From Bacteroidales bacterium (GTDB taxonomy: Bacteria > Bacteroidota > Bacteroidia > Bacteroidales > Paludibacteraceae): a stretch of 64,000 nt of DNA. Below, in pieces: positions 7,128-62,905 of the stretch (positions within the stretch are counted from its first letter, which is position 1; every line of letters begins with the position of its first letter). The translations under genes were made by a program, and so were the position numbers. The notes under the pieces are model-generated. The model worked only from the letters and a program-made list of their open reading frames with translations. It did not search any database and was not told the origin of the DNA. The stretch spans positions 42,989 to 106,988 of the forward strand of contig DUQG01000045.1 of NCBI GenBank assembly GCA_012837935.1, in the 5' to 3' direction.

Positions 7128-8192
7128 ATGAACAGAATTCTTGTAATCAATCCCGGCTCTACTTCCACTAAAGTAGCTATTTTTGAAGAAAATACATTGG
7201 TTGATGTTTTTACTATTCGTCATTCTGTAGAAGAGTTGCAGGCTTATCCACGCGTTATTGACCAACTTGATTTTCGCTACGATTTAATTGTAAATCACTT
7301 ACGAGAAAATGCGGTTACTTTTGATTTTTCGATTGTAATGGGACGGGGAGGAATGCTTCCGCCTGTGGTTTCAGGCATTTATGCAGTAAATAAAAAAATG
7401 CTTGACACGCTTCGTCGTGCAGAACGAGGCGAGCATGCCAGTAATTTGGGCGCTTTCTTGGCTGATAGAATTGCTCGGCAAATTCCGGAATGCCGTGCCT
7501 ATATTGCCGACCCTGTAGCAGTAGATGAAATGGATGAAGTGGCACGCATCAGTGGAATGCCAGAAATTCCACGTCAGACTATTTTTCATGCGCTAAATCA
7601 TAAGGCTGTAGGAAGAATGTATGCCACTCAAATAGGCAAACGTTATGAGGAACTAAATTTAGTTATAGCCCATTTAGGTGGCGGGATTACCATTGCTGCT
7701 CATCGAAAAGGACGTGTGGTGGATGTCAATCAAGGACTGGACGGCTATGGTGCTATCATGCCGGAAAGAGCAGGAACCGTGGATGCCGGAAGGCTGGTAA
7801 AACTCTGTTTTTCGGGAAAATACACGCAGGAGGAAATATTAAAGAAACTTGCCGGGAAAGGCGGTCTGATAGCTCATCTTGGTTCCAATAATGTACAAGA
7901 ACTGGAACTAAAAGCCAAAGCAGGTGATAAGCACATTCAACTGATTTTAGATGCGATGGCTTACACAGTCGGCAAAGAGATTGGCGCTATGCTTATGGTG
8001 CTGAAAGGCGATGTAGATAGCGTAATTTTAACGGGTGGTGTGGCTTACAGCGAATATGTGGTTAGCCGAGTAAAAGAAATGGTTGAACCTTATGCAAAGT
8101 TTACTGTGTTGCCCGGTGAAGATGAGATGGCAGCATTGGCTTCAAATGCAGTGAGATTAATAAAAGGCGAAGCGGAAAGTCTTGAGTTTTGA
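7128..8192 (+). CDS. buk: butyrate kinase
   Basis: 'ILVINPGSTSTKVAIF' acetokinase-family motif. 354 aa. Confidence 0.92.
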   Translation: MNRILVINPGSTSTKVAIFEENTLVDVFTIRHSVEELQAYPRVIDQLDFRYDLIVNHLRENAVTFDFSIVMGRGGMLPPVVSGIYAVNKKMLDTLRRAERGEHASNLGAFLADRIARQIPECRAYIADPVAVDEMDEVARISGMPEIPRQTIFHALNHKAVGRMYATQIGKRYEELNLVIAHLGGGITIAAHRKGRVVDVNQGLDGYGAIMPERAGTVDAGRLVKLCFSGKYTQEEILKKLAGKGGLIAHLGSNNVQELELKAKAGDKHIQLILDAMAYTVGKEIGAMLMVLKGDVDSVILTGGVAYSEYVVSRVKEMVEPYAKFTVLPGEDEMAALASNAVRLIKGEAESLEF

Positions 8193-25870: not shown

Positions 25871-26041
25871 ATGAAAAAAATTCTATTTCTATTATTTGTA
25901 CTGATCTCGTTTTTTTCTTATTCAGTAGTCAAAGCACAACAGAAGACCATCTATATCACATTGGATGTTTCTAGTAGTATGGGGCAAAAAACAAAACGCA
26001 CAAACGCAAAGCGCACAACTAACACAATAACAAACAGTTAG
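25871..26041 (+). pseudogene. 5' fragment of a secreted VWA-type protein interrupted by the prophage left end
   Basis: Signal peptide then 'KTIYITLDVSSSMG' (MIDAS-like DxSxS), then a switch at about 25980 to low-complexity phage-end sequence. Confidence 0.65.
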
Positions 26042-26233
26042 CGAAAACGCAGAAAAAACGAAAAGTACATTTGCTTTAATTTATCTTTAATTTATGGGGC
26101 TGGAAGGTTGATTTACTTTAATTTTGGTTTAACAATCACTTAAATACCCTTTAATTACTGCCTAAAAACGCCACGAAACGCCACAGAACAACGGAAACAG
26201 CCGCTACGCAGCTATGAACTACATTAACAAAAT

Positions 26234-57572: not shown

Positions 57573-58159
57573 TGGCAAAAAAAGATTTAGGAAAAATAGC
57601 AATCACTCCGAGAGGTGAGTGGGTGCAAGGTACAGAGTATGAAAGACTCGATGTTGTAAAAGCAAACGGCGGAAGTTATCTATCGTTAGTAGATAATAAT
57701 AGTGCTGAGTTGGCAGATGAGACGGCTTGGATGGTATTAGCTGAAAGAGGATTACAAGGTGGTAAGATGGAATATTCGGATTTGACAGACGAGGATAAAG
57801 ATGACTTGGTAAGTCATACAGAAAAACCACTTATAAATGAAAATCCTATTGAATTACCTTTTAGAGTTGGAACGCGAAATGGTGAAATAGGTCAATTAAA
57901 ATGTCAAGCAATAAGGATTGGTAGTCAATACAATGGCGTATCTGACACCTACAAATTTGAAAGATCTGTACACATTATTACCGTTATTGGTGTTCAGTTT
58001 GATTTAACTGAAGAAATTCCATTTAAATTAATTAACCCTTCAGACGTAATTATTGAAAATGATGAAAATTATAATACTCAAATAAGGCTTGTTAAATATG
58101 TTTCAACATATTTAATTGTTTTCTATGTAGAAACAGGAGATTTTCTTTTGTCATGTTAA
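57572..58159 (+). CDS. tail/fibre-associated protein
   Basis: 'GEWVQGTEYERLDVVKANGGSYLSLVDNNSAELADETAWMVLA' carbohydrate-binding-like module typical of phage fibres. Confidence 0.6.
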   Translation: MAKKDLGKIAITPRGEWVQGTEYERLDVVKANGGSYLSLVDNNSAELADETAWMVLAERGLQGGKMEYSDLTDEDKDDLVSHTEKPLINENPIELPFRVGTRNGEIGQLKCQAIRIGSQYNGVSDTYKFERSVHIITVIGVQFDLTEEIPFKLINPSDVIIENDENYNTQIRLVKYVSTYLIVFYVETGDFLLSC

Positions 58160-58773
58160 ACATAGCTATCATCGGCAATGGCTGTAACACTAAAAAGTAC
58201 GGCAGCTTCATTGATAGTTTCGATGAGGTTGTTCGTATTAATGGTGGTGCGATGGAGAGAGCCATTTCAGAAAACAGCGAATATGTCGGAACAAAAACAA
58301 CGCTTGCCGTTTTCAACAATTGGAATTTCAAAACAGATATTCCTACACATCCGGATGTGCTCGAAGCGCATAAGTATGCAATAGAAAATAATATACCGAT
58401 AGCATATTCTCGTAAAAACATCATTATCCGAAAAGGTAATGAACTAAAAAACGGAATACCTATCGAATATCTGGATAAAGTGCCTAAGCAAACAATATTC
58501 GGGATAACTAAGGATTTATATGATTACATAGAACAACTATACGATTACAAGCATCCGACTTCGGGGTTGAAAATTTTGTTTTATTTTCTCAAACAAGGCT
58601 ATAGAGATATTGCATTGTTTAATTTTGGATTTACAGGAGTACATTTTTTTGACAAGAAATGGCATGATGTTATGACCGATAAGCGATTTGAAGCTCATTA
58701 TCACAACGGAAAAATAGAGCGTGATATTATTGAAGATTTACAAAGGAAAGTATTAGTGAAAATTTATGAATAA
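58153..58773 (+). CDS. GT29-type sialyltransferase-like glycosyltransferase
   Basis: Motif L-like 'IAIIGNGCNTKKYGSFIDSFDEVVRIN...VGTKTT', motif S-like 'HPTSGLKILFYFLKQGYRDIALFNFGF', motif III/VS-like 'HYHNGKIERDII'. Confidence 0.75.
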   Translation: MLNIAIIGNGCNTKKYGSFIDSFDEVVRINGGAMERAISENSEYVGTKTTLAVFNNWNFKTDIPTHPDVLEAHKYAIENNIPIAYSRKNIIIRKGNELKNGIPIEYLDKVPKQTIFGITKDLYDYIEQLYDYKHPTSGLKILFYFLKQGYRDIALFNFGFTGVHFFDKKWHDVMTDKRFEAHYHNGKIERDIIEDLQRKVLVKIYE

Positions 58774-59413
58774 CACACTTGTAATTATACCTGCTAAAGT
58801 TCACAGCGAAAGGGTGCTAAATAAGAATATGCGGCATATTGACGGCATTCCACTATTTGTACATTCCATTAATTACGCAAAACAGGAAGGTTTCAAGCAC
58901 ATCGCCGTGAGTAGCGATGGCGAGCATATTTTGAAGATAGCTAAAAGTTTAGGTTGCATTCCGGTTAAAGAAAACGTAAATGAAAGTAAATTGGAGTACT
59001 GTGTTAATCAGGTATTGGCACAAGAAAAAGGCTATAGGTATTTTGCACTTCTACAACCCACATCTCCACTTCGAGAAAAAGACAAACTGAAATCTATGCT
59101 CGCAAGAATGAAAAACGAGGAGTTGGAAACACTTCTTACCTGTCAGCAGATAAAGCCTGTAGCGTGGCTTGACCAGTACTGCTTGTTTGACGTTCAAAAT
59201 AGACCATTAAGTCAGCAAGCTAAAAGTTGGATATATCACTTTGATGGCAATATCTTGTTGCGTAATATTGAAAGTTATAAGAAAGAACAAATACTTATTC
59301 CGCAGGTGTCAGGAATAGAAGTAAATGCGTTTCCATATTACTTGCAAATAGACACCATAGAGGAATTTAATCAGATTAAAATGTATGTTGAAAAAAATAC
59401 TGAAAAAAGATAA
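58766..59413 (+). CDS. cytidylyltransferase, CMP-sialic/nonulosonic acid synthetase-like (NeuA/PseF type)
   Basis: 'LVIIPAKVHSERVLNKNMRHIDGIPLFVHSI', 'FALLQPTSPLREKDKL'. Confidence 0.82.
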   Translation: MNNTLVIIPAKVHSERVLNKNMRHIDGIPLFVHSINYAKQEGFKHIAVSSDGEHILKIAKSLGCIPVKENVNESKLEYCVNQVLAQEKGYRYFALLQPTSPLREKDKLKSMLARMKNEELETLLTCQQIKPVAWLDQYCLFDVQNRPLSQQAKSWIYHFDGNILLRNIESYKKEQILIPQVSGIEVNAFPYYLQIDTIEEFNQIKMYVEKNTEKR

Positions 59414-59623: not shown

Positions 59624-60100
59624 ATGAAAGAAATTTATACAGCATTAATAAACAGAATAAAAGAGGAGGTTCCTGCTATTAAATGGATAGACTGGGACAC
59701 AGGACAGTTGGATGGCTACACAATCATAAAAGGAGATGTTCATCGTCCGCCACTTAAGTATCCGGCAGCACTTATCACTATCGGAGTTAATTCCGCTAAA
59801 GATATTGTGGACACAATCCAAGACTGTGTGGTTCATATCAGCATACGCTTAGCGTTTGAACCTATGGAACGGACAAATTCCGAAGCCACGCCGGAAGTGC
59901 GAGACTCGGCGTTACAACCCTACGATGTTATAGATAATCTGTATGCAGCACTACAAGGATATGAAACTGAAAATTTTCACAGCTTATCACGCATGAGCCA
60001 AGGAAAAGAAAACAGCCACAATGGGCTGTTTATCTATCGCATGAATTTTAAAACTGATTTTGAGGATTACGGGGCAGATTCCTCACAAAAGGGAATATAA
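59624..60100 (+). CDS. phage tail-completion/terminator-like protein
   Basis: 'MKEIYTALINRIKEEVPAIKWIDWDTGQLDG...YPAALITIG'. Start at 59624 rather than 59537. Confidence 0.5.
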   Translation: MKEIYTALINRIKEEVPAIKWIDWDTGQLDGYTIIKGDVHRPPLKYPAALITIGVNSAKDIVDTIQDCVVHISIRLAFEPMERTNSEATPEVRDSALQPYDVIDNLYAALQGYETENFHSLSRMSQGKENSHNGLFIYRMNFKTDFEDYGADSSQKGI

Positions 60101-60115
60101 AAAAGCCCCCGGTCA

Positions 60116-60230
60116 CAGTTGGCTCTCTGACCTTCCAACTGTATAAAATGCGAATAGCCGCATACCCGAAGAGCTTAGTAATAAGTTCCGAGTGGTGCGG
60201 CTATTCGCATTTTAAATAAGTGTCAGAGAG
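60116..60230. ncRNA. candidate structured RNA with pseudoknot
   Basis: H1 60116-60122/60135-60141; 19-bp stem 60144-60162/60196-60214; GNRA hairpin 60171-60177/60182-60188; H1 loop 60123-60131 complementary to 60222-60230. Confidence 0.55.
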
Positions 60231-60286
60231 ACAACAAAATTACAAATATAAACCTAAAAACCAAACATTAAATTAAATAATTTATT

Positions 60287-60415
60287 ATGAGCAAATTTAC
60301 TTATAAGGAACAACATGCTGTTATCGTGAAGTGTAGTAACGAGGACGAACAAAGAAAAACTTTTGAAGAGTTAAAGAAAATGGGGTATAAAGATTTAAAA
60401 TTAGTATCAGTATGA
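60287..60415 (+). CDS. 42-aa small protein (MSKFTYKEQHAVIVKCSNEDEQRKTFEELKKMGYKDLKLVSV)
   Basis: ATGA overlap with the next gene. Confidence 0.5.
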   Translation: MSKFTYKEQHAVIVKCSNEDEQRKTFEELKKMGYKDLKLVSV

Positions 60416-61545
60416 AAATTGAAATCAAGCACGAAACAAAAAACTTCGACAGCTTTCGTGCTAATAAGGTGAAAAGCCTTTTTAATCCTGAGCACGGTAA
60501 CTGGGAACACGTGGCAGACCTGCCTATTGAAAACAACGACTGGAAAATCGGGTTAATAGTTGGCCCGAGTGGCTCTGGTAAAACAAGTATCGGTAATCGT
60601 ATTTTTGGGCGCATCCACGACCTTTATGCTGACTGGGATAGTGACAAGGCTATTGTTGATTGTATCGCACCGGAAAAGACACTAAATGAAGTTACAGCCG
60701 CACTTTCGGCTGTAGGTTTAGGAGATGTTCCCGCGTGGCTACGCCCTTTTAATGTTTTAAGTAACGGTGAGAAGTTCCGGGCAGGACTGGCGCGCTTGGT
60801 AGTTGAGCGTCCGGATAAGGTGGTAGTTGACGAATTTACAAGCGTAATCGACCGACAAATCGCCAAAGTTGGCGCGGCAGCTTTTGCAAAATCATGGAAA
60901 AGAGGATCAGGACAAGTTATTTTGCTATCCTGCCATTACGATATTATTGAGTGGCTCCAGCCTGACTGGATATATGATACAGCGGAGGCACGGTTTAGCC
61001 GTGACTGCCTTCGGCAACGCCCACAACTCGAACTTCAAATTTATCAAGTCAGCGGAAGTGTATTCAGGCATTTTAAGCCGCATTATTATTTAGACTTACC
61101 ACTACCGGTGGCGGGAATGTACTACGTGGGTATTATAGACGGCGAGCCGGTTTGTCACTTGGCAGTGTCGCCACTATTTACCGCTAAGGCGTACAGAGCT
61201 ACCCGACTGGTAGTAATGCCGGAGTGGCAAGGGATAGGCGTTGGCACTAAATTTCTGAATGCCATTTGCCAGTATCACCTTGACGGGTACGGTCGCGGTG
61301 GGTACAAATACCATACGTTTTTCCATACTTCGCACCCACAACTCTGTGGAGCATTACGCCACTCTCGAAAATGGATACAAACAGGTGCACGCCTTTACGG
61401 TGATAATAAAGCCAGAAGCGCCAAATCCCTTAAAAAATCGCATTTGAAAAACGGAATTAAAAACAGATGCTCTACCGGATACGGTGGGCACTTTCGAGCC
61501 GTACAAGCTTTTAAATATATAGGAGAAAACAGCAATGAAAATTAG
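60412..61545 (+). CDS. ABC-type ATPase fused to GNAT acyltransferase domain
   Basis: 'GLIVGPSGSGKTSIGN', 'LSNGEKFRAGLARLVVERPDKVVVDEFTSVIDR', C-term 'ATRLVVMPEWQGIGVGTKFLNAI'. Confidence 0.82.
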   Translation: MKIEIKHETKNFDSFRANKVKSLFNPEHGNWEHVADLPIENNDWKIGLIVGPSGSGKTSIGNRIFGRIHDLYADWDSDKAIVDCIAPEKTLNEVTAALSAVGLGDVPAWLRPFNVLSNGEKFRAGLARLVVERPDKVVVDEFTSVIDRQIAKVGAAAFAKSWKRGSGQVILLSCHYDIIEWLQPDWIYDTAEARFSRDCLRQRPQLELQIYQVSGSVFRHFKPHYYLDLPLPVAGMYYVGIIDGEPVCHLAVSPLFTAKAYRATRLVVMPEWQGIGVGTKFLNAICQYHLDGYGRGGYKYHTFFHTSHPQLCGALRHSRKWIQTGARLYGDNKARSAKSLKKSHLKNGIKNRCSTGYGGHFRAVQAFKYIGENSNEN

Positions 61546-62026
61546 AATTTTAGGAAATAAAGAGACGGAGGCATTTAAGAGGGCTGAGCGGCTTGTTAGG
61601 TCGCTCGCCCATGTGACGGAGTTTGAAGGCGTAGCGGATTTGGCAATTGCGCCGTTATTGACCGAAATATTAACGGTTGAGGAATTACAAGAGCCATGGC
61701 TTGGTACGCTTATTTTTCACCCATCTCCACTCCCATACGGGCGTGGAGCCGCATCAATTAAATGGGCGTACAGGCGTAAGGAACCAATAACAGCGGCGAC
61801 TTGGTTCTGGGCTGATGCTGAGCTTGATACCGGAGCAATCTGCGAGCAGGAGATAATTAAAATAGACTACTCGAAACGCCCGCGTGAGTTCTATGAGGCT
61901 GATATATTGCCAGCTATGGAACGAACGCTTAAACGGTGTTTATTTGCTCTTAAAATGGGGTTTAAAAGAGAGGTGCCACAGGTGGAAGAGTATGCGAGCT
62001 TTGATAGGAAGGAGGGTAAAATATGA
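61535..62026 (+). CDS. compact formyltransferase-fold protein
   Basis: 'LIFHPSPLPYGRGAASIKWAYRRKEPITAATWFWADAELDTGAICEQEII'. Confidence 0.8.
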   Translation: MKIRILGNKETEAFKRAERLVRSLAHVTEFEGVADLAIAPLLTEILTVEELQEPWLGTLIFHPSPLPYGRGAASIKWAYRRKEPITAATWFWADAELDTGAICEQEIIKIDYSKRPREFYEADILPAMERTLKRCLFALKMGFKREVPQVEEYASFDRKEGKI

Positions 62027-62796
62027 AAACCCCACTTGTCTATTATGGTGGTAAACAAACAATGCTAAAACATATCCTTCCACTCATCCCGGAACATTCG
62101 ATTTATACCGAAGCGTACGCCGGGGGGTGTGCCGTGCTTTTTGCAAAGACGCCGAGCAAAGTAGAAGTTATCAACGATTTGAACGGCGAGCTGATAAACT
62201 TTTATCGCATTTGCCAATTGCAGCCTGAAGCATTGCAACGGGAAATAAAAACATCTCTTCACGCCAGGGAATTGAACGAACACGCTTTGCATATTTACCG
62301 ACATCCGGTATTTTTTAATCCTGTACAAAGAGCGTGGGCGGTGTGGTTTTCCCTTAAAACCAGTTTCTCTGCTCAAATTTCTGGCGGCTTTAGTTATGAC
62401 AGGCATGGAAAGAAACCTACTGCACTCCAAACAGCCGTAAACAGATTTGATGATGCTATAATTGAGCGAGTGAAACAAATTACCATTGAGCAAAACGAAG
62501 CCACGAAAATCATACGGATTTATGACACACCGGATACTTTTCACTTTATAGACCCGCCATATGTGGATTGCAATCAAGGTCATTACAATGGGATGTTCAA
62601 CCATCAGTCGCTTGTAGAGTTGTTGGAGCTATGTAGTAGCTTGCAGGGTAAATTTATGCTGACTATGTATCCTAATGATGTAATCCAATCATTCGCAGAT
62701 AAATATCATTGGACTATTCACGAAGTAAACCGAACCGTTACAGCTGCCAAAACCACACGCAGGAAACAAGTTGAATGGATGGTATGTAATTATTAA
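62023..62796 (+). CDS. dam: D12-class DNA adenine methyltransferase
   Basis: 'LVYYGGKQTMLKHILPLIPEHSIYTEAYAGGCAVLF' and 'FIDPPYVDCNQGHY' (DPPY). Confidence 0.9.
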   Translation: MKTPLVYYGGKQTMLKHILPLIPEHSIYTEAYAGGCAVLFAKTPSKVEVINDLNGELINFYRICQLQPEALQREIKTSLHARELNEHALHIYRHPVFFNPVQRAWAVWFSLKTSFSAQISGGFSYDRHGKKPTALQTAVNRFDDAIIERVKQITIEQNEATKIIRIYDTPDTFHFIDPPYVDCNQGHYNGMFNHQSLVELLELCSSLQGKFMLTMYPNDVIQSFADKYHWTIHEVNRTVTAAKTTRRKQVEWMVCNY

Positions 62797-62864: not shown

Positions 62865-62905
62865 ATGTACAATTTGTTTTTAATTTATGTACTTTTTGTT
62901 TTTGC
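62865..62905. repeat. two ATGTAC..TTTGTTTTT motifs, inverted relative to a left-end motif at 26049-26070
   Basis: ATGTACAATTTGTTTTT (62865-62881) and ATGTACTTTTTGTTTTTGC (62887-62905) versus GCAGAAAAAACGAAAAGTACAT (26049-26070). Confidence 0.55.

What the first reader, a model, noticed from the sequence alone, without database searches (positions are those of the whole stretch)
60287..62796. Candidate DNA-hypermodification operon: 42-aa protein, ABC-ATPase/GNAT, mini-formyltransferase, Dam methylase
All four genes overlap or nearly abut (ATGA at 60412; 61535 within 61545; 62023 within 62026). Position at the phage right end equals com-mom in Mu, where Mom (a GNAT-fold enzyme) hypermodifies adenine and needs Dam (established). 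Here a GNAT is fused to an ABC ATPase with 'LSNGEKFRAGLARL', followed by a formyltransferase-fold protein retaining HPSPLPYGRG, then a DPPY methylase. Inference: the set installs an acyl/formyl-type or related adduct on adenine to evade restriction, with the small first ORF as a Com-like regulator.
Basis: partly seen in the sequence, partly recalled or inferred. Interest (0 to 1): 0.86.

Follow-up and report, generated by a model that had tools for sequence, protein, structure and literature searches.

The report
Phage DNA-modification operon with formyltransferase-like enzyme
A bacterial virus carries a widespread, never-tested set of three linked genes that probably attaches a small acyl group, perhaps formyl, to its own DNA; the donor-making enzyme and the partner protein identified here make that old prediction testable on phages already in collections.

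Summary
In detail: four overlapping genes end about 110 bp before the right end of a ~37 kb Mu-like prophage. The core is three genes, not four. (1) The 42-aa ORF is not Com-like. It is the detached C-terminal tail of a ParB-domain protein that precedes the same ATPase in other phages. (2) The ABC-ATPase/GNAT fusion belongs to a family already predicted to acylate a DNA base (Iyer 2013; restated in PMC7824862), never tested as far as I could find. In ~47 relatives it is read as two overlapping ORFs joined at a conserved A-run, a likely -1 frameshift. (3) The formyltransferase-fold gene follows in 110 of 133 relatives and is fused to the ABC-GNAT in two. Its closest solved relative is the hydrolase domain of 10-formyl-THF dehydrogenase. 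With that domain and HypX it lacks the Asn of amine formyltransferases, and both are reported or proposed to formylate pantetheine thiols. I infer that it makes formyl-CoA for the GNAT. The Dam-like gene is accessory: a 77%-identical relative lacks it, and unrelated methylases fill the slot elsewhere. Nothing supports adenine as the target, and I found no kinship with Mom. No chemistry has been measured.

The parts
25987..26069 (-). Left end of the Mu-like prophage: two MuA-type sites (TGTGCGTTTTGTTTTT, TGTACTTTTCGTTTTT)
   Evidence: pattern scan; 1 mismatch each
60118..60235 (.). Very stable stem-loop / large inverted repeat between the upstream tail-type gene and the operon; probably a bidirectional terminator
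   Evidence: RNA fold -62.5 kcal/mol, z -9.25; no other copy in the genome (the second hit is its own palindrome)
60287..60415 (+). 42-aa stand-alone homologue of the C-terminal tail (probably beta-alpha-beta) of ParB-domain proteins; predicted binding partner of the ABC-GNAT
   Evidence: phmmer/HMM matches to the tails of full-length ParB proteins; tail in 78 of 80 and ParB domain in 75 of 80 non-FMT loci
60412..61545 (+). ABC-ATPase/GNAT fusion (ABC about residues 1-200, GNAT about 205-370); Walker A GPSGSGKT, LSNGEKF signature, DE Walker B, H-loop His175, GNAT QGIGVG acyl-CoA motif
   Evidence: Pfam/PHROG; invariant columns in a 37-sequence alignment
61535..62026 (+). Short formyltransferase-fold protein, FDH-hydrolase-domain/HypX-like; His62, Ser64, Asp98 kept, Asn of N-x-H absent
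   Evidence: Pfam; PDB profile search; alignments
62023..62796 (+). D12-class (Dam-family) adenine methyltransferase; accessory, not part of the conserved module
   Evidence: Pfam; absent next to the module in other loci
62866..62903 (+). Right end of the prophage: two MuA-type sites TGTACAATTTGTTTTT and TGTACTTTTTGTTTTT
   Evidence: exact pattern matches

Best explanation
A three-protein phage DNA-base acylation module. The ABC-GNAT is the transferase: its ABC half uses ATP to load on or move along DNA, and its GNAT half transfers an acyl group from a CoA thioester to a base amino group. The 42-aa protein is a docking subunit, the remnant of a ParB-type DNA-binding partner. The formyltransferase-fold protein (FMT) supplies the donor: like the hydrolase domain of 10-formyl-THF dehydrogenase and like HypX it moves formyl from 10-formyl-THF to a pantetheine thiol, here CoA, giving formyl-CoA for the GNAT. 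The likely product is an N-formylated base in late phage DNA that shields progeny from restriction. Shown by sequence: the gene set, its conservation and fusions, the catalytic motifs, and the nature of the small ORF. Inferred: substrate, donor, base and purpose.
For: ABC-GNAT-FMT order in 110 of 133 loci with room, start codons overlapping the preceding stop, in phages of Bacteroidota, Pseudomonas and Gordonia. Two natural in-frame fusions of ABC-GNAT with FMT (L105, L122). FMT profile: best PDB match is the FDH hydrolase domain (1.6e-41), against 4.7e-27 for Fmt, with HypX at 2e-16; the window protein alone also ranks FDH first. Asn of N-x-H present in E. coli Fmt, PurN and ArnA, absent in HypX, in the phage proteins and in FDH. 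FDH reported and HypX proposed to formylate a pantetheine thiol (PMC6802093). GNAT keeps the Q-x-x-G-x-G acyl-CoA motif. ParB domain or tail upstream almost always. In three non-FMT relatives the extra genes are aspartate decarboxylase plus a CoA-transferase III, which again looks like CoA-donor supply. The ABC-GNAT was independently predicted to acylate a DNA nucleobase (PMC7824862).
Against: No chemical or genetic test exists. The FMT is missing from the whole sister clade (0 of 80) and from a few FMT-clade members such as L119, so the GNAT can work without it. The tree allows a single acquisition of the FMT, so the many loci are not independent. The window FMT lacks about 50 residues of the N-terminal Rossmann part. 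The phage strongly avoids CTAG, GGCC and GATC, so any protection is incomplete. Formyl-CoA is itself only a proposed intermediate in HypX.
Confidence: 0.42

Rival explanations
1. DNA-base acylation, but with acetyl-CoA or another ordinary acyl-CoA as donor. The FMT then does something else, such as formylating an amino group that the GNAT system has placed on the base, so that the final adduct is compound.
For: The sister clade works without FMT. The GNAT profile's best, very weak PDB match is NAT10, an RNA N4-cytidine acetyltransferase (E 0.0075).
Against: Loss of the N-x-H Asn argues against an amine acceptor for the FMT. GNAT motif A alone is not diagnostic.
Confidence: 0.25
2. The module modifies a host protein or RNA during takeover (as Rac-type phage GNATs acetylate RNA polymerase) and not DNA.
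For: Phage GNATs that modify RNA polymerase are described (PMC7824862).
Against: ParB-type partner, right-end or terminase-adjacent position and occasional methylase neighbours point to DNA.
Confidence: 0.15
3. The FMT is an independent 10-formyl-THF hydrolase feeding folate for nucleotide synthesis and only happens to lie beside the ABC-GNAT.
For: FDH's hydrolase domain can release formate (general knowledge of the family); a phage folate gene would not be unusual.
Against: Two gene fusions with the ABC-GNAT and the near-universal translational overlap.
Confidence: 0.08
4. A sugar-nucleotide formyltransferase for surface glycans, going with the sialyltransferase-like and cytidylyltransferase-like genes at 58153-59413.
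For: Those two sugar genes lie 1-2 kb upstream in the same prophage.
Against: Relatives keep the FMT with the ABC-GNAT without such annotated sugar genes; the FMT is closest to FDH, not to sugar formyltransferases, and lacks the Asn that ArnA keeps.
Confidence: 0.04

Closest known systems
ABC-ATPase/GNAT DNA-acylation system predicted by Iyer et al. 2013 (gkt573) and restated for jumbo phages (PMC7824862)
   Same: Same protein family: the Tenacibaculum phage pT24 system that the paper names is recovered as a homologue here
   Different: The passage in the held paper mentions neither a formyltransferase partner nor a ParB tail nor a frameshift; the 2013 paper could not be read
Mu com-mom
   Same: Last genes at the right end of a transposable phage; small ORF overlapping a GNAT-type gene
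   Different: No sequence similarity of GNAT to Mom or of small ORF to Com; ABC domain and FMT extra; no GATC upstream
10-formyl-THF dehydrogenase (ALDH1L1) hydrolase domain
   Same: Closest solved relative of the FMT; same x-x-H-P-S ... D-x-G active-site pattern without the Asn
   Different: Stand-alone, no ACP or dehydrogenase domains; window form is shortened
HypX/HoxX N-terminal domain
   Same: FMT fold without the Asn, proposed formyl transfer to CoA
   Different: HypX has an enoyl-CoA-hydratase-like partner domain and makes CO; HypX uses Asp in place of the Ser
NAT10/TmcA N4-cytidine acetyltransferases
   Same: ATPase coupled to a GNAT that acylates a nucleobase; weak motif match
   Different: Different ATPase class, RNA substrate; similarity confined to motif A

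Membership tests
Predicted ABC-GNAT DNA nucleobase acylation systems (Iyer/Aravind) | Soluble ABC ATPase coupled with a GNAT domain in a phage | tested here: met
   Pfam/PHROG and alignment; pT24 homologue
Predicted ABC-GNAT DNA nucleobase acylation systems (Iyer/Aravind) | Acyl group on a DNA base | not testable with these tools
   Needs LC-MS; no published measurement found
Mom hypermodification (Mu com-mom) | Mom homologue | tested here: not met
   hhalign probability 0.1-0.4%
Mom hypermodification (Mu com-mom) | Com-like small regulator overlapping the gene | tested here: not met
   No alignment to Com; it is a ParB-protein tail
Mom hypermodification (Mu com-mom) | Dam-dependent control (GATC upstream) | tested here: not met
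   No GATC in 59700-60500
Mom hypermodification (Mu com-mom) | Position at right end of a transposable phage | tested here: met
10-formyl-THF formyltransferase superfamily (Formyl_trans_N) | Catalytic His and Asp | tested here: met
   His62 and Asp98 invariant
Amine formyltransferases (Fmt, PurN, ArnA) | Asn of N-x-H | tested here: not met
   Absent in the phage alignment, present in the three E. coli enzymes
Thiol-directed type (FDH hydrolase domain, HypX) | His-Pro without the preceding Asn, Asp kept; best sequence match | tested here: met
Thiol-directed type (FDH hydrolase domain, HypX) | Formyl transfer to a pantetheine thiol | not testable with these tools
   Enzyme assay needed
YqfB-type N4-acylcytosine amidohydrolases (considered as a clue to the base) | KxxTxR motif in the ASCH neighbours | tested here: not met
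   Neighbours read KxxExR (sequences; motif from PMC6972931), and ASCH occurs in only 8 of 80 loci

The most novel reading that the evidence does not exclude
Phages make formyl-CoA with a dedicated FDH/HypX-like enzyme and use it to N-formylate a base in their DNA: the first formyl-CoA-dependent nucleic-acid modification, written by an ABC-powered GNAT whose dose relative to the bare ATPase is set in one lineage by a -1 frameshift.
Probability: 0.25. Interest if true: 0.88.

Novelty: new variant of a known kind. Interest (0 to 1): 0.64.

Why it matters
The ABC-GNAT systems were predicted in 2013 to acylate DNA, but the modification was left uncharacterised. A conserved donor enzyme with a recognisable thiol-formyltransferase active site, and a second donor-type gene pair in three relatives, turn an open prediction into a specific chemical hypothesis. 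It can be tested by mass spectrometry on virions of isolated phages (Komp_PAO1_1 on strain PAO1, Gordonia phage NHagos). If true it adds a new DNA modification, a new use of formyl-CoA, and a new partner class (ParB tail) for phage ATPases.

Tried and rejected
Mom kinship: hhalign of the GNAT and of the whole protein against Mu Mom gave nothing. Com kinship of the 42-aa ORF: nothing. Cytosine as target from ASCH neighbours (7 of the first non-FMT loci): dropped after a larger sample gave 8 of 80 and the YqfB nucleophile proved to be replaced. Dam as a core gene: rejected. Phage literature with modified-base measurements: the LE3/LE4 paper has no such data; Iyer 2013 is not held. COG2401, recalled as an ABC-acetyltransferase fusion, found no paper. 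Rfam: no match in the region.

Full report
WHAT IS THERE. The four ORFs are exactly as described and overlap by 4, 11 and 4 nt. The window holds a Mu-like prophage with MuA-like, MuB-like and Mu-type head genes. Paired MuA-type sites put its ends near 25.98 kb and 62.91 kb, so the operon is the last one before the right end, where Mu keeps com-mom.

THE MODULE. The ABC-GNAT has relatives in 81 phage records, at least 252 IMG/VR stretches and 49 genome loci. In loci with enough flank the formyltransferase-fold gene (FMT) is immediately downstream in 110 of 133, its start most often overlapping the ABC-GNAT stop. It is in Bacteroidota, Pseudomonas and Gordonia phages. Two loci carry ABC-GNAT and FMT as one ORF (L105 534 aa, L122); both are metagenome-assembled contigs, so the fusions deserve re-sequencing. 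A tree of the ABC-GNAT puts all FMT loci in one clade with at least one loss (L119) and the FMT-less phages in a sister clade. Counts therefore show retention over long divergence, not many independent origins, and some loci are near-duplicates.

THE SMALL ORF. The 42-aa protein matches the last ~40 residues of ParB-domain proteins (~170-240 aa) that stand in the same slot in other phages. In an independent sample of 80 loci of the sister clade the ParB domain is upstream in 75 and the tail in 78. In the Bacteroidota Mu-like phages only the tail remains, and no ParB domain was found elsewhere in this window. The simplest reading is that the tail docks the ABC-GNAT; this is inference. It has no similarity to Com.

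A FRAMESHIFT. In about 47 loci, mostly Flavobacteriia and relatives, ABC and GNAT are two overlapping ORFs in the -1 relation; one other split locus (L130) is in +1. Each of the 47 has an A-AAA-AAN run at the domain boundary, and in several the GNAT frame opens only just before it. Joining the frames there gives a protein that aligns to the window's in-frame fusion over nearly its whole length. This is best explained by a programmed -1 frameshift, giving ABC alone plus ABC-GNAT; the longer A runs could also act by transcriptional slippage.

THE FMT. Its profile matches the hydrolase domain of 10-formyl-THF dehydrogenase at 1.6e-41, Met-tRNA formyltransferase at 4.7e-27 and HypX at 2e-16; the window protein alone gives FDH 1.7e-12. 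His, Ser and Asp of the triad named for FDH in PMC6802093 are kept. The Asn two residues before the His, present in E. coli Fmt, PurN and ArnA, is absent in the phage proteins, FDH and HypX. FDH is reported, and HypX proposed, to pass formyl to a pantetheine thiol. With a partner whose GNAT domain keeps the acyl-CoA motif, the economical inference is formyl-CoA supply. In three sister-clade loci aspartate decarboxylase and a short CoA-transferase III accompany the ABC-GNAT, which fits alternative donor supply.

WHAT IS NOT CORE. The D12 methylase has no relative next to the module elsewhere; a 77%-identical relative ends after the FMT. N6_N4-type or other DPPY methylases sit in the slot in L002, L099, L116, L021 and L032, so methylases are recruited repeatedly but rarely (6 of 72, the window included).

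TARGET AND PURPOSE. DNA as target rests on the ParB partner, on position, on the published prediction and on occasional methylases. The base is unknown. The phage avoids CTAG, GGCC and GATC strongly, so restriction still shapes it.

VERDICT. Real, conserved, already predicted in outline, with a new partner enzyme, a corrected identity for the first gene and a testable donor chemistry. Marked as a new variant of a known (predicted) kind.

Noticed in passing
L037-L076, L125-L138 (ABC/GNAT junction, e.g. L043:8597-8606): Conserved A7-type slippery run joins the ABC and GNAT frames by -1 shift in about 47 phage loci; looks like a programmed frameshift. I did not search the literature for it.
   Followed up: yes
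window 60118-60235: Exceptionally stable 118-nt stem-loop (z -9.25) just upstream of the operon; single copy in the genome.
   Followed up: partly
window 58153-59413: Sialyltransferase-family-29-like and pseudaminate-type cytidylyltransferase-like genes among tail genes of the prophage.
   Followed up: no
window 25981-62905: Near absence of CTAG (1 seen, 59 expected) and GGCC (4 of 82), and few GATC (17 of 99) in the prophage; the host flank shows a weaker version.
   Followed up: partly
L106:3936-5270 and 14 other loci: Reverse transcriptase gene (possibly a diversity-generating retroelement) close upstream of the module in 15 FMT-clade loci.
   Followed up: no
L098:5569-5811 and 21 other loci: 80-aa Mor/C-like possible activator (Pfam Mor E 0.0015) about 190 nt upstream of the ABC-GNAT in 22 loci, reminiscent of C protein control of mom.
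   Followed up: no
L090:6065-7176, L139:2464-2910 and 7458-8159, L210: Aspartate decarboxylase plus short CoA-transferase III beside FMT-less ABC-GNATs.
   Followed up: partly
L146, L147 (Salmonella phage SSU5, Pseudomonas phage phiK7B1): ParB genes followed by an ABC ATPase without GNAT, distantly related to the ABC half; partner enzymes unknown.
   Followed up: partly
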